A stretch of DNA of 64,000 nucleotides from a virus. How positions within the stretch are numbered: the stretch's first letter is position 1; every line of letters starts with the position of its first letter. A model generated the notes under the pieces. It ran no database searches and was not told the origin of the DNA. It saw only the letters and a program-made list of their open reading frames with translations. The DNA lies in IMG/VR virus record IMGVR_UViG_3300035138_000032, positions 1 through 64,000 of that record; one strand, 5' to 3'. The translations under genes and the position numbers were made by a program. Positions 1 through 46,058 of the stretch are shown here, piece by piece.

Positions 1-110
1 AGCTTGTAGGGAGGCGATTTTCCACACTCAGAAGTAATTGAAATAATTGATGATTCAGCGGTGAATTTTTCGATGGGATTTATATAATAATATATAATAA
101 TATCATATAG

Positions 111-200
111 TTAGTATAGAGTAATTAGTATAGAGTAGTTAGTATAGAATAGTTAGTATAGTATTAGTTAGAATTATAGTTAATATAGAACCGGATAGAT
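111..200. repeat. 14-bp tandem repeat, AT-rich
   Basis: Four direct copies of a 14-bp unit starting TTAGTATAGA lie at 111, 125, 139 and 153 and decay into related sequence up to about 200. A 15-bp version of the same unit occurs at 14805-14894, so the family flanks the leftward gene block. Bases 1-110 show no supported gene: every frame is soon closed, and the stretch is probably the 3' flank of something outside the window. Confidence 0.7.
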
Positions 201-207
201 GTATATG

Positions 208-498
208 TTAAGTAAAGGGCATTCCATCTTCAATCATATGGGCTATTAATATATCCGGAGTTAAATCAATAGGTTTTATATTTGGTATAGTTAGCATATA
301 ATTTCGTTGCGCGCGAGTAAAATCAAATGATATTGCATGTTCTCTTATATATATAGCTATTACTCTATATTCAGGTAAATATTCCGCTATATATAATAAA
401 TTCAAATATTCTCTAGCGGAATAGCGCCTATCGAAGTCTATTATTGGCCGGCCCGGCCGCGGAATTTTCTTAGAATCAATGAAAGCTTGATTAGGCAT
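208..498 (-). CDS. Hypothetical protein, 96 aa
   Basis: Not recognised. The start at 498 follows GGAGG nine bases upstream and overlaps the stop of the preceding gene by 8 nt, so the two are co-transcribed and probably translationally coupled. The protein is mixed alpha/beta in appearance with several Tyr and Ile residues and no Cys motif, signal peptide or membrane segment. It is the last gene of the leftward block. Confidence 0.65.
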   Translation of the reverse strand: MPNQAFIDSKKIPRPGRPIIDFDRRYSAREYLNLLYIAEYLPEYRVIAIYIREHAISFDFTRAQRNYMLTIPNIKPIDLTPDILIAHMIEDGMPFT

Positions 499-814
499 TT
501 AGCATTTCCTCCATAGACCTATGAGAATGGGTTATCGTTATGGTGCCTATTATCCTAAATGATTCAGTATCTCCATATGTTACGTGGATAGAATCAATGA
601 ATCTTCTAAGGTGATTGCGTTTGTATATGTATCTTCTTAGTAATAATATATCATTTGTTAGTAATGGCATGTTAGAGAATACAGGTATATCAAGTATCGT
701 ACAGCTATAGGTTTTTCTGCTAAAATCAGCAGATTTTATCACAATTCGTTGTTTTTCTTGCAAAAATCGTTCATTTGGGTCCGATTTTGGTGATTTTGTG
801 GTTATTTTAGGCAT
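491..814 (-). CDS. Hypothetical protein, 107 aa
   Basis: Not recognised. The N-terminus is Lys/Ser-rich (MPKITTKSPKS), followed by a basic segment near residues 60-75 (RRYIYKRNHLRRF) that could touch nucleic acid. No strong ribosome binding site precedes the start. It overlaps the next gene by 8 nt. The start is the only in-frame ATG giving full length. Confidence 0.55.
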   Translation of the reverse strand: MPKITTKSPKSDPNERFLQEKQRIVIKSADFSRKTYSCTILDIPVFSNMPLLTNDILLLRRYIYKRNHLRRFIDSIHVTYGDTESFRIIGTITITHSHRSMEEMLNA

Positions 815-845
815 TTTATTGTATAATTTATTGATTTTGTTGTAT

Positions 846-1205
846 TTATTCGAAAGATAGACTTATTCCAGGTGGTTTTGTTCGTTCTATCAGTTCTCTT
901 ATTAGACGTTCCCTATACTCATCCGACGCGAGATTGTGAAAAGTACCTATATATAGTATTTTTTGATTGGTACCATGATAGTAAACTACGTCTCCTGCAA
1001 CATCTATAGTGATTTTACTAAGTGTAAGTATATATGGTAAAGCCTCTGTAATATTAATAATATAATTTAGAACTTCAGTGGTTATTGATTCTGTTGTGTA
1101 TATACCTACACCATGGGATATGTAATATAACTCTTCTCTTTTCAGCGATTTTTCTTTTAATTTGAATCGTCTATATGCTTTATTTGGGTCTATTCTTTTT
1201 TGCAT
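846..1205 (-). CDS. Hypothetical protein, 119 aa, divergent from the palindrome array
   Basis: Not recognised. The reading frame stays open through the tandem repeat to 1481, but that extension only translates the repeat. I place the start at 1205 (protein begins MQKRIDPNKAYRRF), just outside the array. The body is a soluble domain with a basic N-terminus and predicted beta strands (ITIDVAGDVVYY). It is transcribed away from the ribbon-helix-helix gene at 1466, with the 16-palindrome array between them, so both genes may share that control region. Confidence 0.6.
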   Translation of the reverse strand: MQKRIDPNKAYRRFKLKEKSLKREELYYISHGVGIYTTESITTEVLNYIINITEALPYILTLSKITIDVAGDVVYYHGTNQKILYIGTFHNLASDEYRERLIRELIERTKPPGISLSFE

Positions 1206-1245
1206 TTTCTCACTTGACAAATTGAAAAAAATGATTATGTTGTTT

Positions 1246-1446
1246 GTATACAAAATGTATACAAAATGTATACAAAATAAAATGTATACAAAATGTATAC
1301 AAAATAAAATGTATACAAAATGTATACAAAATAAAATGTATACAAAATGTATACAAAATAAAATGTATACAAAATGTATACAAAATGTATACAAAATAAA
1401 ATGTATACAAAATGTATACAAAATAAAATGTATACAAAATGTATAC
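1246..1446. promoter_or_regulatory. Array of 16 GTATAC palindromes (iteron or centromere-like)
   Basis: Sixteen copies of GTATAC in near-identical A/T flanks (ATGTATACAAA) begin at 1246, 1257, 1268, 1284, 1295, 1311, 1322, 1338, 1349, 1365, 1376, 1387, 1403, 1414, 1430 and 1441. The steps are 11 or 16 bp and mostly alternate, giving a 27-bp higher-order unit. The array fills the gap between a leftward gene and a ribbon-helix-helix gene 20 bp to the right. Ribbon-helix-helix proteins bind short palindromes or repeats cooperatively, so the array is probably this protein's binding site. Its role (operator, partition site or origin) is not shown. The open frames across it have repeat-only translations and are not genes. 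Confidence 0.85.
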
Positions 1447-1465
1447 AAAATGAAAGGACAAAAAG

Positions 1466-1633
1466 ATGTATAAAGAACCAAGACCTAAGGTTATGAGTTT
1501 CCGAGCTACTGAAGAGATGATGGACACTATTAAGGAGTTTGCCGCTGAATTAGATTGTAGTATCTCGGAAGCAATAAATAGAGCTATTGAGTATGGTATA
1601 CTATATTATTACTATAATAATAAAGAGAATTAA
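1466..1633 (+). CDS. Ribbon-helix-helix DNA-binding protein, 55 aa
   Basis: Too short for a routine ORF cut-off but well supported. The start has AAAGGA seven bases upstream. The protein has the fold's signature: a short strand with alternating residues (PKVMSFRAT), helix A (EEMMDTIKEFAAEL), a turn (DCS) and helix B (ISEAINRAIEYGILYYYY). This is the Arc/CopG/MetJ/omega class, which binds DNA as dimers with the strand in the major groove. The 16-palindrome array lies directly upstream, so it probably autoregulates and may also be a partition adaptor or copy-control protein. It is the only rightward gene in the left block and converges by 4 nt on the next gene. Confidence 0.8.
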   Translation: MYKEPRPKVMSFRATEEMMDTIKEFAAELDCSISEAINRAIEYGILYYYYNNKEN

Positions 1634-2961: not shown

Positions 2962-3762
2962 TTATACGCCCACCTGAAAGAATCTGGAGGGTTTCGGCTG
3001 ATCCACCGGTGTTCCAGTCTGCTTGGCCGCATTTAAGAGCGCTTGGATATCCACACCTGCGTTGGCATTTTCGACCGCCGCTCCTCCTGCCTGTGCCCGC
3101 AGCATTGTCATCAGCCCGGTCATGAGTTCATTCGTATTATTTCCATCGATCGCATTTCCTTTTCCCTGGAACGGACCGATACCGGCGCCTCTGGGTGTTT
3201 CCACGGTTGCATATCCATATACCGGTGAATTGGGATTGAATGGCATATTTCGGCGTTTTTCGAGCTCGGCCTGCCACTCCTGGTAATCAGCTGTTCCTGG
3301 CAGGTTCCACCCAATGGGCCTCTGGCCGGCCTGGATTTCCTCCAGGATATGTTTTTGTGATTCCGCACCGAATAGGATCCATCCGGGGATCATCTTAAAC
3401 CCGACTTTCTTGGTGGTGAGCGGGGTGCCGTCCGCTTTGGTCACCATCGTTCCCGGCTGTCCTTGTACGGTGCTGGGTTGAAATACCCGTCCATCATACA
3501 GCTGGGGCACACATACACAGGAGAAGTCTTTTCCCCTGCTCAGGCTTTTCGCGCCCACGTCGGCCATTTTGTTCCATACGGTAAAGTTGTAGACGTCCGC
3601 GCGTCCTCTTCCATCATTTTCCAGGCCGGGTAAGTTGCAGAATGCATCAATCATGAGTCGCTGGTTTACGTCCGTACCGTTTTTGCTGTGCGCCGGTATA
3701 TAGGTGGTGCGAATGGTCGATAATCCGACAAAGATACTTAACGCCATGCTTCTTGAAGCCAT
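2962..3762 (-). CDS. SSB-like OB-fold protein, 266 aa
   Basis: The start at 3762 is preceded by GGAGG eight bases upstream; the longer frame to 3831 has no such site. Residues about 1-160 follow the single-stranded-DNA-binding protein pattern: an initial strand (SIFVGLSTIRTTYIP), a VYNFTVWNKMADVGAKSL segment equivalent to the F.NVV.W.KLAE..A.YL block of SSB, then KDFSCVCVPQL. The C-terminal 100 residues are Ala/Gly/Asn-rich linker and end in FFQVGV, not the usual acidic DIPF tip. A canonical SSB is encoded separately at 11473, so this is probably a second, specialised ssDNA binder. Family assignment is by pattern only. Confidence 0.6.
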   Translation of the reverse strand: MASRSMALSIFVGLSTIRTTYIPAHSKNGTDVNQRLMIDAFCNLPGLENDGRGRADVYNFTVWNKMADVGAKSLSRGKDFSCVCVPQLYDGRVFQPSTVQGQPGTMVTKADGTPLTTKKVGFKMIPGWILFGAESQKHILEEIQAGQRPIGWNLPGTADYQEWQAELEKRRNMPFNPNSPVYGYATVETPRGAGIGPFQGKGNAIDGNNTNELMTGLMTMLRAQAGGAAVENANAGVDIQALLNAAKQTGTPVDQPKPSRFFQVGV

Positions 3763-3836
3763 AAGTTTTACCTCCGTAGTTTGTTGTTTTGGGTAGTTTG
3801 TAGTTGTGCGTAGGGGCCGACCTCGACCCAACGCGA

Positions 3837-4124
3837 TCAGAAATCGGTTAAGAGAAACTCAAATTCTTCTTCTGGTATTGGCTCACCCGTGTTCGGATTC
3901 TCGTGCGTTAGTGGGATATGGAATATTTCTTTTTGTCGCTCCCGTTCGCATGCCTCTACTTTTCTCACTTTCATTGTTGTATAATCATATAATACGAGGC
4001 AGGGGTCTCCGATTTTTAGTGTCTCGTGTTGGGGAAGCCTAAGTGTACTTCCTGTGGGTAGCTGCACTTTGAGCAGTCCCACGTTTCCGGTAACGACGCC
4101 TTTTAGCGCCGTAACGGTGATCAT
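3837..4124 (-). CDS. Hypothetical protein, 95 aa, small beta-rich domain
   Basis: The start at 4124 overlaps the stop of the 518-aa gene as ATGA, so the two are coupled; the frame upstream of it lies inside that gene. The sequence begins MITVTALKGVVTGNVG and reads as a small beta barrel with Gly-turns and IGDPCLVLYDY, ending in an acidic tail (PEEEFEFLLTDF). Function is unknown; an OB- or SH3-like fold would fit. Confidence 0.6.
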   Translation of the reverse strand: MITVTALKGVVTGNVGLLKVQLPTGSTLRLPQHETLKIGDPCLVLYDYTTMKVRKVEACERERQKEIFHIPLTHENPNTGEPIPEEEFEFLLTDF

Positions 4125-5677
4125 TGCACGGTTTCGTAGACATTGTCCACGATTTTTACGGCGCATTTTTCGTTGAACGTTGATCCGGCGCCTGCTTCAT
4201 CTCTGAACACCCATGCAATGATATGCCCCTGGCTTGCCTGGGCGGCATATTGTGTGAGCGCTCCATTGGCATTTTTCTTGTACGGATTCTGTGTCAGAAA
4301 CGATCTCAATACCTTGTTTCCGCCAAGATTTAGGGCCAGTTTGTATCCAACGATACCGCTTTTGGGAAATACCAAACCTGTTACTGCGCCGTTGAATGGC
4401 AATTCCGTTGCGGATTGTGTGTTTTCGATGGTGTAGCTCTGATATGACACAATCACGCCTTCGGCGCCGTATCGTTTGACAATTTCGCTCAAATCCACCG
4501 GATGGGCGATGGCCGGGATGTTTCCAAAGTGAAACGTATTGGTAGCGGGATTCTTTTTCCAGCCACAGTTCACGAACATGTGGTGGTACAGTTTTAGCCA
4601 TACTTCTTTCAGGAACGCCGGCAACATTTCCGTTGCGATGGTCGGCGCCGCACCCATTGTCACTGTTGATCCTGCTACTTCGTTGGGCAGTGGTACCTCA
4701 AACGGATTCGCATTTTCTTTGGGAGTGCTCGGTGCGTTTGTATTGACCGGTGTAGGGGGTACAGGCTGTGTACCCGTTCCGGCCAACATTGCCGTAATCT
4801 TGTTCAGGTAGTCTTGGGTAATTGCCGGTTCCGGTGTTTCTTCATCGACCTTTACTTCAGCGGTTCCGGCCACGGCTGGTTCCTGAACTTCGACTGATAC
4901 CGGTTTATCCACCACTTCGTGTACCTGTTCACCGTTCTCCAGATGGCCCTCGAGATTCACCGCTGTTACTTCTTGTTCCCACGCTTCCTCATCATTGGTG
5001 TAAGCCATTTTGATGAATTCACGTAGCGTTGTACAGCTTTTGGGGCCATCTTCGTAAACCACGCCATTGGCCAACTGGTCTTTGGCTTTGATCACCCAGG
5101 GCAGGTCTTTGGTGTCTTCACCGATGAATAAATCCATGAGCTCAACGCCGATGTACCCGAGGTCATCCGCCGGGATTTCGATGTCATACGTTTTGGCCAG
5201 GAATACCAGATCCGCCATTGCGTCGTTGTTGGCCGATTCTTCGAGTTCAACCGGTGCTTCCCTTTTTGCCTGTTCGTATATCGCTCTGTCCATCTGTGCG
5301 TTTTCGATGTGACTGATCTCATGTCCAATGGCCACTAATACATTCACCCAGATGATCCCGGCCAGTCCGAGGTTCACGTCCCCGCCGGCCGCAATCACTT
5401 TGGCATCTTCCATGCATTTCGCCAGGTTAATCACGATGGCGTCCACGTCCTCGTGGGCCATTCCGATGTTTCCTTCCGGATAATTGTCTTTCCGGAACAT
5501 CACCAACCGCGGCGGGTAATCCTTGTGTCGATCCAACAGCGCGCAGAGTAATCCGGTCATTTTGTCTCCGACCAGTTCCGCGCCGACGATCATTGTACCG
5601 CCCTTTGTGATGATGAATTCCTCGATCTCGGTTTCAACTTTCTTTTCTTGCTGTACTGCTGTTGCTACTTCATTCAT
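4121..5677 (-). CDS. Putative zinc metalloprotease-like protein (HEISH), 518 aa
   Basis: Residues 119-123 are HEISH inside a hydrophobic helix (WVNVLVAIGHEISHIENA), the zinc-peptidase HExxH motif. About 30 residues later NNDAMADLVFLA is placed like the third-ligand helix of gluzincins, with Asp where Glu is usual. Residues about 265-345 are a Pro/Thr/Val-rich linker. The C-terminal domain (about 350-518) is separate and unrecognised. The start has GGAGGG about six bases upstream. The gene is co-transcribed with the SSB-like gene, so it may act on DNA-bound proteins, but no substrate can be inferred. It could also be a non-catalytic scaffold. Confidence 0.5.
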   Translation of the reverse strand: MNEVATAVQQEKKVETEIEEFIITKGGTMIVGAELVGDKMTGLLCALLDRHKDYPPRLVMFRKDNYPEGNIGMAHEDVDAIVINLAKCMEDAKVIAAGGDVNLGLAGIIWVNVLVAIGHEISHIENAQMDRAIYEQAKREAPVELEESANNDAMADLVFLAKTYDIEIPADDLGYIGVELMDLFIGEDTKDLPWVIKAKDQLANGVVYEDGPKSCTTLREFIKMAYTNDEEAWEQEVTAVNLEGHLENGEQVHEVVDKPVSVEVQEPAVAGTAEVKVDEETPEPAITQDYLNKITAMLAGTGTQPVPPTPVNTNAPSTPKENANPFEVPLPNEVAGSTVTMGAAPTIATEMLPAFLKEVWLKLYHHMFVNCGWKKNPATNTFHFGNIPAIAHPVDLSEIVKRYGAEGVIVSYQSYTIENTQSATELPFNGAVTGLVFPKSGIVGYKLALNLGGNKVLRSFLTQNPYKKNANGALTQYAAQASQGHIIAWVFRDEAGAGSTFNEKCAVKIVDNVYETVQ

Positions 5678-6097: not shown

Positions 6098-6862
6098 TTA
6101 ACTCGGAATATCTCTGAGCCAGAGCTTGATATATTTCTCATCAACAACCCGATCACGCATAACCTCTCGATTACCGATGTCCCTGGCCCACCAATAAGCC
6201 CATCTCGACTCGGTGACTCTATCTCTCATTATTTCTTCATCACCGATATGCCTGGCCCAATAAAAAGCCCATCCTGACTCGGTGATCCGATCTCTCATGA
6301 TTTTCCTATCACCGATAAACTTGGCCCAGTTATAAGCCCATCTCGACTCGGTGACTCTATCTCTCATTATTTCTTCATCACCGATATGCCTGGCCCAATA
6401 AAAAGCCCATTCTGACTCGGTGACTTTATTTCGCATGATCTCTTTATCGCCGATAAACCTGGCCCAGCGATAAGCCCATTCTGATTCAACAACTTTATCA
6501 CGCATGACTTCTTTATCACCGATATCCCTGGCCCAATAATAAGCCCATCCTGACTCGGTGATCCGATCTCTCATGATTTTCCTATCACCGATAAACTTGG
6601 CCCAGTTATAAGCCCAATACGATTCAGTGATTTTCTCACACATGATCTTTCGATCACCGATATTCCTGGCCCATCGATAAGCCCATTCTGAATTGATTTC
6701 AATATCTTTGATTACCTCGAGAACAATTTTACGAAATGGTTTTAGCTCTTTCATAATTTCGTCGAAACACTTATCTTCATCCTCAAATATATCTACTACG
6801 TCCTCCGGCAGTTTGCCAGAGAACAATTCTTTTGCCAGTTTTCTTTGTTCTTTGTAATTCAT
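6098..6862 (-). CDS. WAY-WAR-IGD 23-residue repeat protein, 254 aa (paralog 1)
   Basis: A capped N-terminal region (MNYKEQRKLAKELFSGKLPE, acidic EDEDKCFDEI) leads into eight tandem 23-residue repeats of consensus ES.WAY.WAR.IGD..IMRDRVT, then a degenerate ninth ending in WLRDIPS. Each unit looks like a helix-turn-helix hairpin, so the protein is probably an alpha solenoid. The start has AAGGAGG just upstream. Paralogs are at 9430 (same size) and 12747 (remnant). The repeat resembles other short helical repeat families in phages and eukaryotic viruses only in style; I do not recognise a named family. A binding or scaffolding role is inference. Confidence 0.75.
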   Translation of the reverse strand: MNYKEQRKLAKELFSGKLPEDVVDIFEDEDKCFDEIMKELKPFRKIVLEVIKDIEINSEWAYRWARNIGDRKIMCEKITESYWAYNWAKFIGDRKIMRDRITESGWAYYWARDIGDKEVMRDKVVESEWAYRWARFIGDKEIMRNKVTESEWAFYWARHIGDEEIMRDRVTESRWAYNWAKFIGDRKIMRDRITESGWAFYWARHIGDEEIMRDRVTESRWAYWWARDIGNREVMRDRVVDEKYIKLWLRDIPS

Positions 6863-9429: not shown

Positions 9430-10239
9430 TTATACCACACAGCCAGTGGCTAGTTTCTTTCTCATAATCCCGTGATAACTTGGGATGCTCCCGAGCCAGA
9501 GTTCGACATGTTTTTTATCAGTGACCCTATCACGCATGGCTTTCCTATCACCGATGTTCATGGCCCACCAAAAAGCCCATTCTGATTCGGTGACTTTATT
9601 TCGCATGATTTTCCTATCACCAATATCCCTGGCCCAGCGATAAGCCCAATACGATTCAGTGACCCGATCGCGCATGATCTCTTTGTCACCAATATTCTTG
9701 GCCCATTTATAAGCCCACTCTGACTCGGTGACCCGATCACGCATGACTTCTTTATCACCAATATCCCTGGCCCATCGATAAGCCCATCCTGACTCGGTGA
9801 CCCGATCACGCATGACTTTTCTATCACCAATATTCTTGGCCCATTTATAAGCCCACTCTGACTCGGTGACCCGATCACGCATGACTTCTTTATCACCAAT
9901 ATCCCTGGCCCATCGATAAGCCCATCCTGACTCGGTGATCCGATCTCTCATGATTTTCCTATCACCAATCCACCTGGCCCAGCGATAAGCCCATTCTGAT
10001 TCAGTGACTCTATCACGCATGACTCCCTTATCACCAATAAGCCTGGCCCAATAATAAGCCCATTCTGAGGGAATTTCGATATTCTTGATCACTTCAAGAA
10101 CAATTTCCCGGAACGGTTTCAGTTTTTCCAGGATAGCACCGAAACACTCATCTTCATCTTCAAATACTTTTACCACATCACTCGGCAGTTTGCCGGAAAA
10201 TAGTTCTTTTGCAAATTTTCTTTGTTCTTTGTAATTCAT
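9430..10239 (-). CDS. WAY-WAR-IGD 23-residue repeat protein, 269 aa (paralog 2)
   Basis: Same architecture as the gene at 6098: identical opening MNYKEQRK, acidic cap, then eight units of ES.WAY.WAR.IGD..VMRDRVT and a degenerate last unit ending WLGSIPS. It continues 15 residues further (YHGIMRKKLATGCVV) into sequence related to intergenic element X, so its original stop may have been lost. Units 3 and 5 are identical and several DNA units are near-identical, a sign of recent repeat duplication. AAGGAGG precedes the start. Confidence 0.75.
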   Translation of the reverse strand: MNYKEQRKFAKELFSGKLPSDVVKVFEDEDECFGAILEKLKPFREIVLEVIKNIEIPSEWAYYWARLIGDKGVMRDRVTESEWAYRWARWIGDRKIMRDRITESGWAYRWARDIGDKEVMRDRVTESEWAYKWAKNIGDRKVMRDRVTESGWAYRWARDIGDKEVMRDRVTESEWAYKWAKNIGDKEIMRDRVTESYWAYRWARDIGDRKIMRNKVTESEWAFWWAMNIGDRKAMRDRVTDKKHVELWLGSIPSYHGIMRKKLATGCVV

Positions 10240-14804: not shown

Positions 14805-14894
14805 TTAGTATAGAATCAATTAGTATAGAATCAATTAGTATAGAATCAATTAGTATAGAATCAGTTACCATAGAGTTAATTAGCACAGCATAGA
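14805..14894. repeat. 15-bp tandem repeat
   Basis: Four good copies of TTAGTATAGAATCAA start at 14805, 14820, 14835 and 14850, then two decayed copies. The same core (TTAGTATAGA) repeats every 14 bp at 111-166. Confidence 0.8.
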
Positions 14895-14978: not shown

Positions 14979-15054
14979 TTTAATAGGAACGGAGTGAATA
15001 TTAAAATGGCTTTAATAGGAACGGAGTGAATATTAAAATGGCTTTAATAGGAAC
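14979..15054. repeat. 32-bp direct repeat with internal inverted repeat
   Basis: Two perfect 32-bp units (14979-15010, 15011-15042) and a 12-bp partial third. CATTTTAATA before and TATTAAAATG inside each unit form a perfect 10-bp inverted repeat around GGAACGGAGTGAA. It lies 50 bases upstream of the first rightward gene and may be an operator or attenuator. Confidence 0.7.
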
Positions 15055-23894: not shown

Positions 23895-24611
23895 ATGATT
23901 TATAGAAAACAACATGTTAAATCTGATGGTCGTCGTTTAAATAGAAGTGGCCCACGTGATATGCAGGCCCGTACCTCATCAGGTTCTGATTCAGAGGTAA
24001 TAGAGATGTTGACGAATGAGTTAACGAGTCTTAAAGCTGAGCTTATTAATCTTAAAAGAGCCTCTTCAACCAGTGAAGCCCCTAATAAGAATTTCTATTC
24101 ACCTGAGCAGGTGGATGAGGAGATAAGAAAGGCTGTAAGTTCTGCAATAGCTGATGTGTCTAAAGGCGACAAAGATATGGCCATTAGGATAAGTGAATAT
24201 AAATCTAATCTATCAGAAATGAGGGCCGCTAATGATAATATTAACAGACTTTACAGCGCCGTGTTAAAGGAAAACAGTCAATTAAAAGAGAAGTTATCTA
24301 AATTAGAGGCTGATGTCGGTGAGTTGGTTGAGTTAAGGCAGCAAGTATCAGTGTTAAAGCAGGACTTAATAGGTAAACAAGAGGTTATAGATGTTTTGAA
24401 GGCCAAACCTGCGGTTATAGATAGTTACAACAACACCTCCGTTGAGGATTCCCAAAGACCACAGATGGAGCAGGTATTTGTTGACCCGTTAGATGATACC
24501 TCTGGAGACGGGCTTAAACCATCAATAAGTGTTGAAACAATCCTTAAAGAGGACACGGTGGATGACAAAGTGGATAAATTAAGGGATTTGTTAGGGAAGT
24601 CTTTACGATAA
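23895..24611 (+). CDS. Coiled-coil protein, 238 aa
   Basis: Residues about 30-60 and 95-165 are heptad-rich (LKEKLSKLEADVGELVELRQ). The N-terminus is basic (KSDGRRLNRSGPRDMQAR) and the C-terminus acidic, ending KLRDLLGKSLR. It sits between ClpP and the actin-like gene, two bases after ClpP, so it may be an adaptor for one of them. No known family. Confidence 0.6.
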   Translation: MIYRKQHVKSDGRRLNRSGPRDMQARTSSGSDSEVIEMLTNELTSLKAELINLKRASSTSEAPNKNFYSPEQVDEEIRKAVSSAIADVSKGDKDMAIRISEYKSNLSEMRAANDNINRLYSAVLKENSQLKEKLSKLEADVGELVELRQQVSVLKQDLIGKQEVIDVLKAKPAVIDSYNNTSVEDSQRPQMEQVFVDPLDDTSGDGLKPSISVETILKEDTVDDKVDKLRDLLGKSLR

Positions 24612-24633: not shown

Positions 24634-25635
24634 ATGGATGTTAATGGAATTGGTGTTGATGTTGGTACTAACATGTTAGTTTCGGCAAGAGTCAACACTG
24701 AGGGTAAACCGATGTTTAAGATGGCTCGCGATGCTTTCTATCGTATTGTTCCAAAGAGCGATGTTAATCGTAATAGTATTAGGAAAGCCATAGAAAAGCG
24801 AGGGTTTAATTTTATAGAAGATTCAGACGGATCGTTCGTAGTAGTAGGCGAAGAAGCACTTGAAACAGCTATTGAAAGAAATGATGTGGCTAAAAGGCCG
24901 TTAAGGAGGGGAGTTATATCACCTAAGGAAAAAGACTCATTACCTATGTTAAAACTATTGCTTGAGAGTTTGATAGGTAAGGGCGACGGCGAAACAAAAT
25001 TGGTCTATTCAGTGCCAGCAAAACCAATAGACGGTGATTTTGATATTGTGTACCATACTGAAATGATGGGTACTTATTTAAGAGGGATGGGTTATTCTGC
25101 TCAGCCGATAAACGAGGCATTTGCTATAGCTCTTAGTGAGTTGTTAGACGAGGGTTTAACAGGTATATGTTTGAGCTTCGGCGCCGGTATGGTTAATACT
25201 TCAGTAATCCACCAGGGAGATCCTCTCGTTGAGTTTAGTACGACTAAGGCTGGTGATTTTATTGATATGTCAGTAGGTAATGCTCTTGACATATCACCTA
25301 GTATAGTGCAGTTAGAAAAAGAATCTGGTGTGGATTTAGATAAGCACACGTCTAAAATAATGGAAGCTGTGTCTGTTTACTATAATAGTGTCATAGAGTA
25401 TACTATAAGAAATATAGCGTATGAACTTAAACAGCGCGAGAAATCCCTTCCTATCTTTAGGGAGGAGGTTTCTTTGGTTGTATCTGGCGGTCTCACATTG
25501 GCTAAGGGATTTAATAACAGAATTAGGACAATTCTTAATAAAGTCGATTTCCCCATCAAAATAGGTGATGTAAGAAAGGCTGTCGATCCTATGACAGCCG
25601 TTGCTAATGGTGCACTTTTAGCGGCCAGATTATAG
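24634..25635 (+). CDS. Actin-like ATPase (ParM/MreB superfamily), 333 aa
   Basis: Actin-fold motifs in order: phosphate-1 GIGVDVGTNMLVSAR (residues 5-19), connect-1 PINEAFAIALSE, phosphate-2 LSFGAGMVNTSVI and adenosine motif VVSGGLTLAKGF. The Asp normally preceding the phosphate-2 glycines is replaced (SFGAG), which may alter hydrolysis. Such proteins form filaments that segregate plasmids or position phage DNA. AAGGAGATAATAATT precedes ATG. The ribbon-helix-helix protein at 1466 with its palindrome array is a candidate DNA adaptor. Confidence 0.75.
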   Translation: MDVNGIGVDVGTNMLVSARVNTEGKPMFKMARDAFYRIVPKSDVNRNSIRKAIEKRGFNFIEDSDGSFVVVGEEALETAIERNDVAKRPLRRGVISPKEKDSLPMLKLLLESLIGKGDGETKLVYSVPAKPIDGDFDIVYHTEMMGTYLRGMGYSAQPINEAFAIALSELLDEGLTGICLSFGAGMVNTSVIHQGDPLVEFSTTKAGDFIDMSVGNALDISPSIVQLEKESGVDLDKHTSKIMEAVSVYYNSVIEYTIRNIAYELKQREKSLPIFREEVSLVVSGGLTLAKGFNNRIRTILNKVDFPIKIGDVRKAVDPMTAVANGALLAARL

Positions 25636-25697: not shown

Positions 25698-26345
25698 ATG
25701 TTTAATAGAGAGACATTTTATACTCATATACGACCTATGTTCGGTGGTAAGCTTAAACAAAAGCAGGTCGATGGTTTTAATGCTATATTAGATTATTGGG
25801 AAAACGATGTAGAACGGTTGTCGGATTATGAGGACTCCTATGTTGTAGAGTTCCAGTGGTTGGCCTATATCTTAGCCACAGTACATCATGAGACGGCTAA
25901 AACCATACAACCAATAAAGGAGTATGGTAATAACGATTATTTTCATAGAATGTATGACATAGATGGCGAACGACCTCATGTAGCAACTAGACTAGGTAAT
26001 GTAGAGCCTGGTGATGGGGTCAAGTACGCTGGCCGTGGTTTTGTACAACTTACCGGTCGTCGTAATTACGCATTCTGGTCAGATGCCCTGGGTATTGATT
26101 TGATCGGTAATCCTGACATGGCTATGGATTTAGTAGTTGCTAGAGAAATTCTTATTATAGGTATGATAGATGGTACCTTCACTGGTCGAAAATTATCTAC
26201 GTATTTTGGTGATGATAAAACTGATTGGCGCAATGCGAGAAAAATAATAAACGGTCTTGATAAAGCAGATCTGATAGCCGGCTATGGTGAGGGTTATTTT
26301 GATGTTTTAGTGCGCGCGGATAACAGGTTTGACTTAATAATATAA
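25698..26345 (+). CDS. Endolysin, GH19 (chitinase/lysozyme-like), 215 aa
   Basis: Central signature ILATVHHETAKTIQPIKEYG with the catalytic Glu (HHET) and second acid (KEYG), then YAGRGFVQLTGRRNY, as in GH19-type phage muramidases. Length fits a single catalytic domain; no signal peptide, transmembrane segment or cell-wall-binding domain is visible, so release needs a holin. It cuts peptidoglycan glycan strands at lysis. A homing endonuclease gene begins on its stop codon. Confidence 0.85.
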   Translation: MFNRETFYTHIRPMFGGKLKQKQVDGFNAILDYWENDVERLSDYEDSYVVEFQWLAYILATVHHETAKTIQPIKEYGNNDYFHRMYDIDGERPHVATRLGNVEPGDGVKYAGRGFVQLTGRRNYAFWSDALGIDLIGNPDMAMDLVVAREILIIGMIDGTFTGRKLSTYFGDDKTDWRNARKIINGLDKADLIAGYGEGYFDVLVRADNRFDLII

Positions 26346-27940
26346 TGTTTAAAAAGCTAACATATGATTTTGTAAAAAGAAGTTTTGAGGAAAACGGATA
26401 TAAATTACTTTCTAAAGAGTATATTAATTCTTCTTCCAAGTTAGAATATGAATGTCCTAATGGACATAGACGTGGCATTACTTGGAATAAATGGAACGCC
26501 GGTAGACGGTGTCCTTATTGTTCCGAAAACAGTAGAGTATATGGTAGGGATATAGAATATATAAGAAGAGTTTTTGCCAAAGAGGGGTACACTCTTTTAA
26601 GCACTGAATATATATCTTGCGATACAAAACTTGAATATATTTGTCCTAATGGTCATATATACACAACGTCGTGGGATTCGTGGACTTCTAAGGGTAATAG
26701 GTGCGCTTTGTGCTCTAAAAATATCAAACCAACTATAGAGGAAGTAAAAGAGGCTTTCAAAACTAATGGGTATGTCTTATTAGAGGATAGTTATAAAAAC
26801 GCTAATACAAAGATGAGATATAAGTGTCCTAAAGGACATGAGGGTTATATTACGTGGGGTTATTGGAATAATAACTCTACTGAAAGATGCCCTATATGTT
26901 CTGGTAAATGTATACATAGTATAGAGTATATAAAGTCAGAGTTTGAGAAAGAGGGTTATAAGCTTTTAATTAAGGAATACAAAAACGGCAAGCAAAAATT
27001 AAAATATATTTGTCCAGATGGTCATAAACATTCAATAACTTGGAATAGGTGGCAGCAAGGCCAGAGGTGCTATAAGTGTTCTTTTAGTGGTACCTCTAAT
27101 GGTGAACAAAGTCTATTAAATTATCTGAGAGCTAATTTGGAATACGATATTATTGAAAGGGATAGAACCCTAATTTCTCCACAGGAATTAGATATTGTAA
27201 TCCCGGAAAAAAAATTAGCCATAGAATACTGTGGCCTCTATTGGCACTCCGAACTAGCTGGAAAAGACAAAAATTATCATCTTAATAAATTAAAAGCCTG
27301 CGAAGAAAAAGGATATAGGTTATTAACTATTTTTGAGGATGAATTTATTAATAAAAAGGATATTGTTAATAGTACTTTAAATAGTATTATTGGTTTTGGA
27401 GATTGTGAGGTTATTTACGCCCGTGATTGTGAGATAAAGGAAGTTAGCCCGGGTGTAATAAAAGAATTTTGTGAAAAAAATCATTTACAAGGTTATGATA
27501 ATGTATCGTCTGCTAGATTAGGTGCTTTTTATTGCAATAAACTTGTTGGTGTTATGTCTTTTAGTAAATTACCAATGGCTAATGAACAAGAGAATGTTTG
27601 GGAATTACATAGATTTTGTTCAAAATTAAATTATGAAATTATTGGAATTGAGTCTAAGTTATTAAATTACTTTGAAAATAATTGTAGTTGGAAATCGATT
27701 TTTTCATATTCAGATCTCAGGTGGTGTGATGGTGGTTTATACGAGATAATGGGGTTCACTTGTATAGGTAATACCAAACCAGATTATTGGTATTTTAAGA
27801 AGTTAAACAGAAAACATAGGTCTAGTATGGAGAAGTTAAAAAACGAACCGGCCGCTGAGCGGCAAATTCGTAAATCCCAAGGTCGTAATATAATTTGGGA
27901 TTGCGGAAATAAAAAATTTATCAAGGAGAATTGTAAATAG
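26345..27940 (+). CDS. Free-standing homing endonuclease, zinc fingers plus Vsr/EDxHD-like nuclease, 531 aa
   Basis: Four N-terminal repeats of about 60 residues (GYKLLSKEYINSSSKLEYEC, PNGHRRGITW, RRCPYC) each carry Cys ligands of a treble-clef finger. Residues about 260-345 form the nuclease: GEQSLLNYLR, QELDIVIPEKKLAIEYCG, YWHSE, as in Vsr/EDxHD-type homing enzymes such as I-Bth0305I. The C-terminal ~170 residues (HLQG, LHRFCSKLNYEIIGIESKL, SYSDLRW) recall a GNAT/Mom-like fold. A relative lies at 44553. The start overlaps the lysin stop (TAATG). Confidence 0.75.
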   Translation: MFKKLTYDFVKRSFEENGYKLLSKEYINSSSKLEYECPNGHRRGITWNKWNAGRRCPYCSENSRVYGRDIEYIRRVFAKEGYTLLSTEYISCDTKLEYICPNGHIYTTSWDSWTSKGNRCALCSKNIKPTIEEVKEAFKTNGYVLLEDSYKNANTKMRYKCPKGHEGYITWGYWNNNSTERCPICSGKCIHSIEYIKSEFEKEGYKLLIKEYKNGKQKLKYICPDGHKHSITWNRWQQGQRCYKCSFSGTSNGEQSLLNYLRANLEYDIIERDRTLISPQELDIVIPEKKLAIEYCGLYWHSELAGKDKNYHLNKLKACEEKGYRLLTIFEDEFINKKDIVNSTLNSIIGFGDCEVIYARDCEIKEVSPGVIKEFCEKNHLQGYDNVSSARLGAFYCNKLVGVMSFSKLPMANEQENVWELHRFCSKLNYEIIGIESKLLNYFENNCSWKSIFSYSDLRWCDGGLYEIMGFTCIGNTKPDYWYFKKLNRKHRSSMEKLKNEPAAERQIRKSQGRNIIWDCGNKKFIKENCK

Positions 27941-32469: not shown

Positions 32470-35289
32470 ATGTCCGACATAATCATGGAGCAGGGTATGG
32501 AACTCATAGAATTTTATAGAGAAAATCCATGCATTGCTGCCTATGACCTGTTGCGTGTGGATTTAGCACCTATACAAAGGGCGGTCTTCGAGGATATGTG
32601 GTTTAAGAACTACGTTATAGCTATTTGTGGCCGTGGCGTAGGTAAGACTTTTATGTTAGGAACTTTATCTACTTTGAGTTGTATGCTGTACCCAGGATAT
32701 AGAGTAGGGTTAATTGGGCCCGTTTTCCGCCAAAGCAAGATGATCTTCAGTGAAGTTGAGAAACTTTACGCAAAATCCCCACTATTACGTGAAGCCTGTG
32801 AGAAGAGACCTACCAGGGGCTCTGATACCTGTTATTTAAGATTCAAGTCCGTAGGAGGTTGTAGTCCCTCATTTATCGAAGCGTTACCTTTGGGCGATGG
32901 CTGTATAACTTCTTGTAATTATTTGACATTTAGTGATAGATTTGGAAAAATAGATGACGCTCATGTTGATAATATAGATCACAATCACTATTTAGATAGA
33001 GAAGATATGGTGTGGTCTAATGGTGCTTTTAAGCTAACTGATAGATCTTTATGTAATGGTATAAAAAATACTATCAAAATTAAGACCAAAAAAGGTTTTG
33101 AAAGCGAAGGTACGCCTAATCATGAGTTTAAAGTAGTCAGAGGCGGTGAGATAGTTTGGTGTAGATTTGATGCTATGGTAGTTGGGGATCGTGTATTAAT
33201 AGATCGAACTAAACGGTGGCATAGTGGACATACTGATGTGACAAAGGAACAGGCTTATTCTTTGGGTTTATTAGTTGCTGGGTGTGATTCATCTATAGTT
33301 AATTCGTGGTTATGTGATACGTTTGGTTTATCTAAAGTTAAAACTATAGACAAATCCATACCAAAAGTTATATTATGTTCAAGCAGGGATGTTATGTCAT
33401 CTTTTATAAGAGGATTGATGGACGGTGATGGTTCTATTTCGGATAAAGGTGATAGAATTATTTTTACAAATACTTCAAAAGAATTAGTTGGCCAATTACA
33501 ATATATCTTACTACATTATGGTATTGTTGCAAAGTTGAGTAAAAAGCCCGAATGTAACTCAAATTGGAATGTGTGTTATACATTAGATATTACTGGTACT
33601 AATGTTGATTTATATATGAAAGAAATAGGTTTTGGTTTATCCAGAAAAACCAATAAATACATTCATAGAGATACATATAACCATTATGATACTGTACCAA
33701 TTGACATACATATGGTAATTGATTTTGTTAATGAATATCATTACAAAGGCTTCGATGGTTGTAGAAAATGCCCCGATATAGTCCCCAGCAAACTGATTAG
33801 TAGAAAAGACTTATCTTTTGCATTATGTGATGATTTATTATATAAATATGGACATATTGATGATAGTAGAATAGACATAATACGCAGATTAAATAATACT
33901 AATATATATTATGATGAAATAATAGAAATTACTGATGGAGAAGCGTGTACATATGATATTCATGTACCAGACGGTAATGAATACTGTGCAAATGGTTTTT
34001 TCAGTCATAATAGTAAGATCCGTGGTTCACGTTTCTATCTTATAGTAGTGGACGAGTTAGCTCAAGTCCCAGACCAAGTATTGGATATGGTTGTTAGACC
34101 TATGGGCGCCACAACACTCGAACCAATGGAAAATGTTAGGAGATTACAGCGGCAAGAAAAATTGATTAAGTTAGGACTAGCTACAGAGGATGATTTTGAA
34201 GATGGTAAAATTAATAAAATGGTAATGACTTCATCAGGGTTTTATAAGTTCAATCATATGTGGCGTAGAATGAAAGACTATTGGCGGCAAATGGAGCTTC
34301 ACGGTGAAGAATCTCAATATAAAGTTTGGCAGGTACCTTATTGGGATTTACCAAATGGATTTCTTGATGAGAATAATATAAAGGAGGCGGAACGTATAAT
34401 GTCTTCCGCTGAATTTAGTATGGAATACGAAGCCGCGATGGTATCTGATTCAGAGGGATTTTTCAAAGCTTCCGTGTTGGAGTCTTGTACCGGATCTTTT
34501 GGTTTGGAGGTCCGTGGTGAGCCAGGAGCCGAATATGTTGTTGGTGTAGACCCAAGTCAGGGAGGTAGTGCGAGTTGCGGTGTAGTAATCGTAAGGCTGG
34601 GTAATCCAAATGTGCTTGTTAATGTGTTGGAATTGAAGGGTAAGACCACACAGGAATTAACAATGACAGTACAGGCTATCTGTGAGTCCTATAATGTTGT
34701 TAGGATTTTCATGGATAAGGGCGGCGGTGGTAATGCTATAATGGACTTATTAGAAGAAGGCTATAATAGTAAGGAACCGATAATAGATCGCTCGGATAAA
34801 GATAAGGTAACTTTGAAGGGCCGCCATATACTTGAGATGGTTAATTTTAATCCGACATGGATAACTGATGCTAATTTTACTACTCTAGCTATGTTGGAAG
34901 ATAAGAAGTTATTATTTCCAGAGACCCCTGTTGATGGTGTCTCTGTACTTGATAAGATTTACAAAAACATTTTGACTTTAAAGAAGCAAATGTTGAATAT
35001 AGTTGTAACACAGACTGGCTCCGGCGCTCTGCATTTTGATACACCTAAGAAGGGGCAGAATAAGGATTTATATTCAGCCATGATTCTAGCTGCTCATGGT
35101 TGTAAGCTCGTGGCCCGTGAATTGGAGGGCGATCCTGAACCACTGTTATACCAGACAGGGGGTTATGTACAAGAGCGTAAACCTAATGCCCCTTGGCATT
35201 TTCTAGGAGCTCATAGTTCACCTGGTACTACAGTGCTTGATGGTTTATTAGGACATGCTATATTAAAAAATAAGCGTATAATTAAATAA
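32470..35289 (+). CDS. terL: Terminase large subunit with intein, 939 aa (569 aa after splicing)
   Basis: N-extein: Q-motif region (DLAPIQRAVFEDMWFKNY) and Walker A GRGVGKT at residues 54-60. An intein interrupts at residue 145. C-extein: Walker B and catalytic Glu in YLIVVDELAQ, coupling motif VMTSSG, then RNase H-type nuclease with Asp in VVGVDPSQGG, IFMDKGGGG and KDLYSAMILAAHG. It cuts concatemers and pumps DNA into the prohead. AAGGAGAGGTAGTT precedes ATG. The insertion (GDG/SKIRGSRF) sits in the ATPase core, so packaging depends on protein splicing. Confidence 0.95.
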   Translation: MSDIIMEQGMELIEFYRENPCIAAYDLLRVDLAPIQRAVFEDMWFKNYVIAICGRGVGKTFMLGTLSTLSCMLYPGYRVGLIGPVFRQSKMIFSEVEKLYAKSPLLREACEKRPTRGSDTCYLRFKSVGGCSPSFIEALPLGDGCITSCNYLTFSDRFGKIDDAHVDNIDHNHYLDREDMVWSNGAFKLTDRSLCNGIKNTIKIKTKKGFESEGTPNHEFKVVRGGEIVWCRFDAMVVGDRVLIDRTKRWHSGHTDVTKEQAYSLGLLVAGCDSSIVNSWLCDTFGLSKVKTIDKSIPKVILCSSRDVMSSFIRGLMDGDGSISDKGDRIIFTNTSKELVGQLQYILLHYGIVAKLSKKPECNSNWNVCYTLDITGTNVDLYMKEIGFGLSRKTNKYIHRDTYNHYDTVPIDIHMVIDFVNEYHYKGFDGCRKCPDIVPSKLISRKDLSFALCDDLLYKYGHIDDSRIDIIRRLNNTNIYYDEIIEITDGEACTYDIHVPDGNEYCANGFFSHNSKIRGSRFYLIVVDELAQVPDQVLDMVVRPMGATTLEPMENVRRLQRQEKLIKLGLATEDDFEDGKINKMVMTSSGFYKFNHMWRRMKDYWRQMELHGEESQYKVWQVPYWDLPNGFLDENNIKEAERIMSSAEFSMEYEAAMVSDSEGFFKASVLESCTGSFGLEVRGEPGAEYVVGVDPSQGGSASCGVVIVRLGNPNVLVNVLELKGKTTQELTMTVQAICESYNVVRIFMDKGGGGNAIMDLLEEGYNSKEPIIDRSDKDKVTLKGRHILEMVNFNPTWITDANFTTLAMLEDKKLLFPETPVDGVSVLDKIYKNILTLKKQMLNIVVTQTGSGALHFDTPKKGQNKDLYSAMILAAHGCKLVARELEGDPEPLLYQTGGYVQERKPNAPWHFLGAHSSPGTTVLDGLLGHAILKNKRIIK
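32902..34011 (+). mobile_element. Intein with LAGLIDADG endonuclease, 370 aa
   Basis: First residue Cys (CITSCNYLTFSDRFGKI, block A), block B with TPNHEF, two dodecapeptide-like segments (YSLGLLVAGCDSS and SFIRGLMDGDGSI), block F YDIHVPDGNEYCANG and terminal FFSHN, then Ser as +1 residue. All splicing residues are present, so it should excise itself and ligate the terminase. The endonuclease domain can home into intein-less terminase alleles; the first dodecapeptide looks altered (Ala-Gly-Cys-Asp). Confidence 0.93.
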
Positions 35290-44552: not shown

Positions 44553-46058
44553 ATGTACAAAGATAAGAAATGTCAATATAAACAGTGTGATAATATTTTT
44601 ACTCCTACTACAGGGAGTCAAAAGTATTGTTCATCCTGTGCTATTAAATCTAAACAGGAAAAGGACAGGCTAAGGTGGCGAGATCGTAACAGAGAGCTTA
44701 ATTGTTATAAAGAATATACAAGGTTATGTAAAATATGCGGTAAAGAGTTTAAAACATTTTATAAAAAGAAAATTTATTGTGGCTCAGAGAAGTGTGAAGC
44801 AGAACGTATTAGATTGAAAAATAAAAATTATCATGAAAAAAGAGATCATGATTATATGATAGGGAAAGGTAGAAGTTATTATAGAAAAAATAAAGCTTCT
44901 ATTTTATTAAAGAAAGCCGCAGTATATAGAAAAAATAATAAAAATGTAAAGAGATATAAAAATAAAATACACATTCATAATATTGATTATATACGAAACT
45001 ATGTTGAAGAGCGCGGTTACCAATTACTTTCAAAAGAATATTTAAATAGTAAAAGTAAAATTAAATTAAAGTGTCCTAATGGGCATACTTGGAAAACAAC
45101 TTTTCATAATTTTAGAGATGCTAATAGCAGGGGAGAGATCATTACTGGGGCTAGATGTATTACATGTTATTTGAACAATAATTATACGTCCAAACCTGAA
45201 CAGAAAATTCGTGATTTTTTTAAGGAACATCACCCCAATATAAAATGTCTATATAATGATAGAACTGTAATAGGACCAAAAGAATTAGATTTGTATTTTC
45301 CTTCTAATAAAGTTGCTGTTGAGGTTTGCGGTTTATACTGGCATTCCGAAAATCTTGGTAATACTGATAGAAATTATCATTATGAAAAGATGGTAGCTTG
45401 TTTTAATAATGGAGTGAGACTAATAACGGTTTTTGAAGACGAGATCTATAATAAGTTTGATATTGTAATTTCTAGGATCTGCCAGGCATTGGGAATTATT
45501 AAACATAAGGTCTTTGCAAGAAATTGCGACGTTAGAGAGATTTCTGCTAATGAAGCTAATGGGTTTTTTGAAAAGAATCATTTACAAGGAAAGTCAAATA
45601 GTGTAAAGGCTTGGGGACTGTTTAATAATAACAAGTTAATTGCAGCATGTGGTGTAGGTAATTTATTAAGAAAACGTATATCAAATAAAAATGTATTAGA
45701 GTTGAAAAGATTCTGTTCTTTGATAAATTATACTGTTGTAGGTGGAGCAAACAAACTATTTAAGCACGTAGTTATGTATGCAAAGAAATTAGGATATGAT
45801 GAGATAAGGTCCTACTGTGATATGAGGTATGCTAATATTTTTAATGTGGTATATGATATATTAGGTTTTAAATTACTGACTTTAACTAAATATACACCAC
45901 ATCATTTTAAATCCGGTATAAGATATAGGAATTTCTCTTTGAGAAAGATTGCTGTAGAACGTGAGTCAGGTAAAACTGAATTTGAATTGAGAAAAGCTCA
46001 AGGTTATGATAGGATTTGGGATTGCGGCCACAGAACTTATGTTTATAGAATTATCTAA
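44553..46058 (+). CDS. Free-standing homing endonuclease, Vsr/EDxHD-like, 501 aa
   Basis: N-terminal zinc fingers (CQYKQCDNIFTPTTGSQKYC, CKICGKEF) and one GYQLLSKEYLNSKSKIKLKC repeat as in the gene at 26345; the nuclease has KPEQKIRDFF, KELDLYFPSNKVAVEVCG and YWHSEN; the C-terminal region has NHLQG and LKRFCSLINYTVVGGANKL. It is inserted directly after the capsid gene. No ribosome site is seen, and translation may be low. Likely target is the capsid gene region (inference). Confidence 0.72.
   Translation: MYKDKKCQYKQCDNIFTPTTGSQKYCSSCAIKSKQEKDRLRWRDRNRELNCYKEYTRLCKICGKEFKTFYKKKIYCGSEKCEAERIRLKNKNYHEKRDHDYMIGKGRSYYRKNKASILLKKAAVYRKNNKNVKRYKNKIHIHNIDYIRNYVEERGYQLLSKEYLNSKSKIKLKCPNGHTWKTTFHNFRDANSRGEIITGARCITCYLNNNYTSKPEQKIRDFFKEHHPNIKCLYNDRTVIGPKELDLYFPSNKVAVEVCGLYWHSENLGNTDRNYHYEKMVACFNNGVRLITVFEDEIYNKFDIVISRICQALGIIKHKVFARNCDVREISANEANGFFEKNHLQGKSNSVKAWGLFNNNKLIAACGVGNLLRKRISNKNVLELKRFCSLINYTVVGGANKLFKHVVMYAKKLGYDEIRSYCDMRYANIFNVVYDILGFKLLTLTKYTPHHFKSGIRYRNFSLRKIAVERESGKTEFELRKAQGYDRIWDCGHRTYVYRII

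What the first reader, a model, noticed from the sequence alone, without database searches (positions are those of the whole stretch)
1246..1633. Sixteen-copy GTATAC palindrome array next to a 55-residue ribbon-helix-helix protein
Seen: 16 palindromes at 11- or 16-bp steps between two divergent genes, immediately upstream of an RHH gene missed by length cut-offs. Known: RHH proteins such as CopG, omega and ParR bind tandem short sites, and R1 parC consists of 11-bp repeats. Inference: it is a DNA-binding switch, a centromere or an iteron origin. The alternation of one and one-and-a-half helical turns would set two geometries of dimers.
Basis: partly seen in the sequence, partly recalled or inferred. 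Interest (0 to 1): 0.75.

Follow-up and report, generated by a model that had tools for sequence, protein, structure and literature searches.

The report
Phage RHH gene with leader array
A large bacterial virus carries sixteen identical copies of a short symmetrical DNA word between a promoter and a tiny DNA-binding-protein gene; related viruses keep the same arrangement in the same place but with a different word, so it is probably a self-regulating protein-DNA switch, and possibly a docking site for moving the viral DNA.

Summary
In detail: 16 perfect TGTATACA sites at 1245-1447 (nine 11-bp, six 16-bp steps) directly 5' of a 55-residue ribbon-helix-helix (RHH) gene, 1466-1633. The window is part of a 77-kb fragment of a large phage. 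No other such GTATAC array was found in the collections scanned. But three independent relatives that cover the syntenic spot (G010, G015, G024) each have a small RHH-like gene preceded by its own array, with different site words and spacing. In three of the four phages a TTGACA...TATAAT-like promoter abuts the array's far edge, so the sites fill the RHH gene's leader. Sites are largely confined to this locus, about 13.5 kb from another array that sits at the GC-skew minimum in the 238-kb relative. Best reading: an autoregulatory multi-site operator that also faces a divergent small-protein operon. A centromere role with the phage's Volactin-family actin is a live rival: phage AlpA-alpS is a close architectural precedent, but this RHH has no filament-binding tail and lies 23 kb from the actin gene. 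Binding and function are untested; the RHH assignment is firm here, moderate to weak in the relatives.

The parts
1214..1241 (+). Sigma70-like promoter TTGACA-16-TATGTT; predicted start of transcription falls at the first repeat
   Evidence: 10 of 12 matches; perfect -35 promoters occur at 0.4% per 35 bp of strand, yet 3 of 4 such loci have one at the array edge
1245..1447 (.). Array of 16 perfect TGTATACA palindromes, steps 11 or 16 bp, filling the RHH gene's 5' leader
1466..1633 (+). 55-aa ribbon-helix-helix protein (Arc/CopG type), probable binder of the array
1234..1261 (-). Weak divergent promoter-like site (TATACA-16-CATAAT) whose -35 lies inside the first repeats
   Evidence: consensus match only, not above shuffle expectation
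208..1205 (-). Divergent operon of three small proteins of unknown function (208-498, 491-814, 846-1205)
   Evidence: no Pfam match
108..189 (.). Second array (TTAGTATAGAG, 14-bp, about 6 copies) at the far end of the divergent operon; counterparts in G024 (L052:7202-7338) and G015 (L053:7863-8047)
2962..3768 (-). SSB-like protein, conserved left-arm neighbour used for synteny
4121..5677 (-). HExxH metallopeptidase-like protein, conserved left-arm neighbour used for synteny
14805..14883 (.). Third array (TTAGTATAGAATCAA, 15-bp, about 5 copies) at the junction of the two divergent gene arms and the GC-skew switch; putative origin or early-promoter region
   Evidence: counterpart in G024 at 58578-58677, at that genome's skew minimum, and in G017 (L068:2543-2697)
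24634..25635 (+). Volactin-family actin-like protein (candidate DNA-moving filament if the array is a centromere)
   Evidence: PF25216 E 1.2e-55; 25 related contigs, one of them identical
23895..24611 (+). Coiled-coil protein directly upstream of the actin gene in the relatives too; alternative actin partner

Best explanation
It is an autoregulatory cassette: promoter, array of binding sites in the leader, RHH gene. SHOWN from sequence: the array, the promoter-like site abutting its distal edge, the RHH fold, the same order in relatives with different site words, and confinement of the sites to this locus. INFERRED: RHH dimers each sit on one TGTATACA, pack cooperatively along the roughly 200-bp array, and the resulting nucleoprotein stretch blocks transcription running from the promoter at its edge and occludes the divergent promoter. 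RHH level is thus held at a sharp threshold and the divergent small-protein operon is gated with it. The number and spacing of sites set the threshold. Protein and sites diverge together between phages, so each phage has a private recognition word.
For: RHH fold of the window protein. Promoter-array-RHH order in G000, G010 and G015: TTGACA-16-TATGTT at -252, TTGACA-16-TATATT at -244, TTGACA-17-TATACT at -174, each array starting about 30 bp 3' of the -35 and ending 17-20 bp before the ATG. Background rate of such promoters is 0.4% per 35 bp. G024 has an RHH-like gene with a 5-6 site array in front. RHH-likeness of relatives: the G024 ORF hits the same Arc-like PHROGs 582/876 at 0.015/0.026; the low-confidence G010 model's best structural matches are mostly RHH proteins. 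Sites confined: 16 of 17 TGTATACAAAA in G000, 12 of 12 TATACCGAA in G010 within 1.6 kb, 4 of 5 AAATTAATGTA in G015's 234 kb. Known RHH regulators bind arrays over their own promoters (omega/ParB of pSM19035, PMC9499535).
Against: No binding or expression data. Sixteen sites is far more than autorepression needs. Operators are usually at or upstream of the promoter, whereas here the sites are downstream and would act as a roadblock. G024 has no recognisable sigma70 promoter, and its site word is less confined (5 of 16). In G015 and G010 the RHH assignment rests on inspection and a weak model. In the other genomes site symmetry is no better than chance.
Confidence: 0.52

Rival explanations
1. 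Centromere-like site. The RHH coats the array to form a segrosome that ties phage DNA to the phage's own Volactin-family actin filaments (or to a host structure, as in motor-less StbA), positioning or segregating replicating genomes. Autoregulation would be a by-product, as in parMRC and alpAC.
For: Actin gene in the same genome and its relatives; one large array per genome, 13.5 kb from the putative origin array in both G000 and G024; RHH ParR proteins bind direct repeats and ParR/parC pairs diverge by family (PMC9426499); phage AlpA binds a region with 24 alpS repeats upstream of alpA and 110 bp downstream of its transcription start, a comparable leader position (PMC4446434).
Against: RHH is 55 aa and ends at helix 2, with no tail for an actin; the RHH proteins share no conserved segment although the actins are 60-80% identical; actin is 23 kb away and has its own conserved coiled-coil neighbour; G024 and G015 arrays have only 4-6 units; relatives were found through the actin, so co-occurrence is not independent evidence.
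Confidence: 0.25
2. Iteron-type replication origin or copy-control locus: the RHH or another initiator binds the array to open AT-rich DNA.
For: Very AT-rich direct repeats near SSB-like genes.
Against: No replication initiator recognised beside it; gene-strand and GC-skew switch at the array at 14805 (window) and 58.6 kb (G024), not here.
Confidence: 0.07
3. Orphan RHH antitoxin with its usual palindromic operator.
For: Structural neighbours include many RHH antitoxins; antitoxins autoregulate.
Against: No toxin-like gene in an operon with it; the next gene is convergent; 16-site leader arrays are not typical.
Confidence: 0.05
4. RNA-level control: the repeated palindromes fold in the leader RNA and regulate translation.
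For: Window leader MFE -60.9 against -20.7 for shuffles.
Against: Perfect palindromes fold trivially; leaders of G015 and G024 show no excess structure (z -1.3 and -0.1), so it is not the conserved property.
Confidence: 0.04

Closest known systems
AlpA-AlpC-alpS of Corynebacterium prophage CGP3 (PMC4446434, PMC5539076)
   Same: Phage; actin-like protein; many short repeats between the adaptor's transcription start and its gene
   Different: AlpA is not described as RHH, is co-transcribed with the actin gene, and repeats are TTAAnnG; here the RHH stands alone 23 kb from the actin
Omega (RHH ParB) and parS of plasmid pSM19035 (PMC9499535)
   Same: Small RHH protein; 7-10 tandem short sites overlapping its own and other promoters; regulation plus partition
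   Different: Sites are contiguous non-palindromic heptads at several promoters with a ParA partner; no ParA was noticed here and sites are at one locus, downstream of the promoter
ParMRC type II partition, ParR/parC (R1 11-bp, pB171 10-bp, pCW3 17-bp repeats; PMC9426499)
   Same: RHH binder, direct-repeat array, an actin in the genome, site words that differ between families
   Different: The actin gene is not adjacent; RHH lacks a filament-binding tail
StbA-stbDR of R388 (PMC3098194)
   Same: Single binder, 9-bp repeats spaced by 2 bp (11-bp period) around its own promoter, needed for plasmid positioning
   Different: Different protein, on a plasmid; the same motif also at other promoters
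CopG / Arc repressors
   Same: Fold and autoregulation by small RHH proteins
   Different: One or a few operators rather than 16 sites in the leader

Membership tests
Ribbon-helix-helix (MetJ/Arc/CopG) superfamily | Short beta strand followed by two helices | tested here: met
   AlphaFold helices 12-29 and 33-53 after an N-terminal stretch that cannot pair in a monomer model, pLDDT 87; PF01402 E 0.0011 (just under the cut-off, 19.2 against 20.5 bits); Arc, AmrZ, CdbA, CopG head the structural list
Ribbon-helix-helix (MetJ/Arc/CopG) superfamily | Dimer that binds DNA through the paired strands | not testable with these tools
   Only the monomer was modelled; no binding data
ParMRC (type II) partition | Direct-repeat array upstream | tested here: met
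ParMRC (type II) partition | Actin-like gene in the same operon as the RHH gene | tested here: not met
   Volactin-family gene is 23 kb away in a different transcription unit
ParMRC (type II) partition | RHH adaptor with C-terminal filament-binding region | tested here: not met
   Protein ends at residue 55, two residues after helix 2
ParMRC (type II) partition | Stabilises a plasmid | not testable with these tools
   needs an experiment
AlpAC-alpS phage segrosome | Repeats in the leader of the adaptor gene | tested here: met
   promoter-array-RHH order, compared with PMC4446434
AlpAC-alpS phage segrosome | Adaptor co-transcribed with actin gene | tested here: not met
RHH ParB/omega (type Ib) partition | ParA-type Walker ATPase partner in the same locus | tested here: inconclusive
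   None noticed among the neighbouring ORFs, but only part of the genome is held and no dedicated ParA search was run
Iteron replication origin | Initiator gene next to the iterons and skew switch at the site | tested here: not met
   No initiator recognised beside it; skew switch lies at the 14.8-kb array

The most novel reading that the evidence does not exclude
A viral centromere of a new type: a hypervariable, origin-proximal RHH-array segrosome on large phages that carry a Volactin-family actin encoded elsewhere in the genome, with private recognition words giving each phage its own incompatibility group.
Probability: 0.18. Interest if true: 0.75.

Novelty: new variant of a known kind. 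Interest (0 to 1): 0.45.

Why it matters
The layout (promoter, 100-200 bp of tandem sites, small RHH gene) is kept at one place in diverged large phages while the site word and the protein change almost completely. This is a natural series for studying how a DNA-binding protein and its site co-diverge. It also offers a concrete candidate for the missing DNA-docking partner of the phage Volactin-like actin, whose function is unknown. If only autoregulatory, it is still an unusually large leader-borne operator.

Tried and rejected
Exact 11/16 GTATAC triple pattern in IMG/VR and GTDB contigs: no hit. Direct DNA and protein searches with the RHH or the left-arm proteins in phages, plasmids and IMG/VR: nothing useful. 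The first nine actin relatives seemed to lack RHH and array, but synteny showed that none covers the spot, so this was not a fair test. The PF01402 six-frame search missed the RHH-like genes of the relatives; they were found by synteny and reading. MAFFT could not align the four RHH proteins sensibly. Foldseek for the G010 protein gave nothing useful. RNA-structure explanation rejected as the conserved property. A stoperator-like dispersed regulon was considered and rejected because sites are confined to the locus. Dyad symmetry of the relatives' sites was tested and is not above background.

Full report
WHAT IS THERE. Window 1245-1447 holds 16 perfect TGTATACA palindromes with nine 11-bp and six 16-bp steps. 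All sites and spacers are identical, which points to recent expansion or homogenisation of a 27-bp double unit. Simulated sequence of the same local composition never gives more than 3 GTATAC in 202 bp. A 55-aa RHH gene follows at 1466. A perfect -35 (TTGACA, 1214) with a 16-bp spacer and TATGTT precedes the array, so the array would be the leader of the RHH mRNA. A gene starting at 1205 runs the other way.

THE PROTEIN. PF01402 (E 0.0011, just below cut-off), PHROG 876 'transcriptional repressor' (1.7e-5) and NCBIfam aCcr1, an RHH regulator (2e-4, far below cut-off), all point to RHH. The AlphaFold model (pLDDT 87) has the two helices, and Arc, AmrZ, CdbA and CopG head the structural list, with low scores as expected for 55 residues.

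THE GENOME. The window belongs to a 77,388-bp IMG/VR record without end repeats. Relatives reach 234-238 kb, so it is probably a fragment. It has terminase, ClpP-type protease, two SSB-like genes and a Volactin-family actin (PF25216, E 1.2e-55). TTGACA/TATAAT-like promoters and Shine-Dalgarno sites suggest a bacterial host. One related contig was binned with a Candidatus Fermentibacteria genome, which is only a weak hint.

RELATIVES. The actin finds 25 contigs. Nine found first looked negative for RHH and array, but none of them covers the window's left arm at this spot. With the left-arm metallopeptidase-like and SSB-like genes as anchors, four records do: G010, G015, G024 and G023. G023 and G024 look near-identical here, so there are three independent cases. 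At the syntenic spot each has an array and a small RHH-like ORF. G010: ten T(A/T)(C/T)AC(C/T)GAAATAA sites, steps 17-26, ORF of 78 aa (L054:2116-2352). G015: five TTAATGTA sites, steps 26-27, ORF of 90 aa (L053:6266-6538). G024: five or six CACTGTAA sites, ORF of 57 aa (L052:5941-6114). G010 and G015 also have TTGACA-16/17-TATAAT-like promoters at the distal edge of the array. Such promoters occur once in about 8.6 kb of strand, 0.4% per 35 bp. The gene order SSB-like operon, convergent RHH, array, divergent small genes is kept in all. The site words differ in every genome, and the proteins are hardly alignable.

HOW SURE THE RELATIVES' RHH CALLS ARE. G024's ORF hits the same Arc-like PHROGs as the window protein, weakly (0.015, 0.026). 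G010's model is low confidence (pLDDT 56), yet most structural rows are RHH proteins, with Z 2.1-2.9. G015's is by inspection of its strand-helix-helix pattern only. The conclusion 'array plus small gene kept' is firmer than 'RHH gene kept'.

WHERE THE SITES ARE. They are largely confined to the locus: 16 of 17 TGTATACAAAA, 12 of 12 TATACCGAA in two clusters 1.3 kb apart in G010, 4 of 5 AAATTAATGTA in 234 kb of G015; CACTGTAA in G024 is 5 of 16, the rest scattered. In the whole 238-kb G024 the survey finds only three intergenic arrays. One is at 58.6 kb at the GC-skew minimum, the RHH array is at 72.2 kb, and one is at 73.2 kb. The window has the same three in the same order: 14805-14883, 1245-1447 and 108-189. 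The RHH array is about 13.5 kb from the skew-switch array in both.

READING. Autoregulation by a multi-site leader operator explains promoter placement, confinement, the divergent neighbour and the fold, and is an ordinary use of RHH proteins. What it does not explain well is the size of the array. A centromere-like role explains size and origin proximity, and has a close precedent in phage CGP3, where AlpA binds a region with 24 repeats located downstream of alpA's transcription start and links DNA to the actin AlpC (PMC4446434). Against it are the missing tail, the 23-kb distance from the actin, and the lack of any conserved RHH segment although the actins are 60-80% identical. The two readings are compatible, since parC, parS and alpS loci are usually both. 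I give autoregulation alone about one half and a centromere role about one quarter.

NOVELTY. Components and principle are known. The specific combination (leader array of private words with a stand-alone small RHH gene at a conserved place in large actin-bearing phages) was not found in the databases or papers searched. I rate it a new variant of a known kind.

Noticed in passing
window 108-189 and 14805-14883; G024 73215-73316 and 58578-58677; G017 L068:2543-2697: Conserved pair of other short-period arrays (TTAGTATA / TAGTATTA / AGTACTAA words) flanking the left arm; the inner one sits at the arm junction and GC-skew switch, a candidate origin or early-promoter array. From memory, TAGTATTA resembles the box bound by the archaeal RHH regulator aCcr1.
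   Followed up: partly
L054 533-635 (G010): Second cluster of the G010 RHH-type site (TTCGGTATA), mostly in the opposite orientation, about 1.3 kb from the main array, possibly for looping or control of another small gene.
   Followed up: partly
window 32470-35289: Terminase large subunit appears interrupted by an in-frame intein with an endonuclease-like part; relatives' best segments cover only about 430 residues.
   Followed up: no
window 26345-27940, 44553-46058; L009 5622-7178: Three paralogous large genes that look like homing-endonuclease-type proteins (zinc-ribbon-like repeats plus a nuclease-like C-terminus).
   Followed up: no
window 6098-6862 and 9430-10239: Two genes made of about 23-residue WAYRWARDIGD repeats (69-bp DNA repeats); the second is where the identical contig G001 breaks.
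   Followed up: no
window 24634-25635: Phage actin with strong match to the archaeal Volactin family; about 31% identical relatives in two huge uncultured phages (LR745208, LR756511).
   Followed up: partly
window 14979-15054: Perfect 32-bp repeat (2.4 copies) that carries a Shine-Dalgarno-like GGAACGGAG and an ATG.
   Followed up: no
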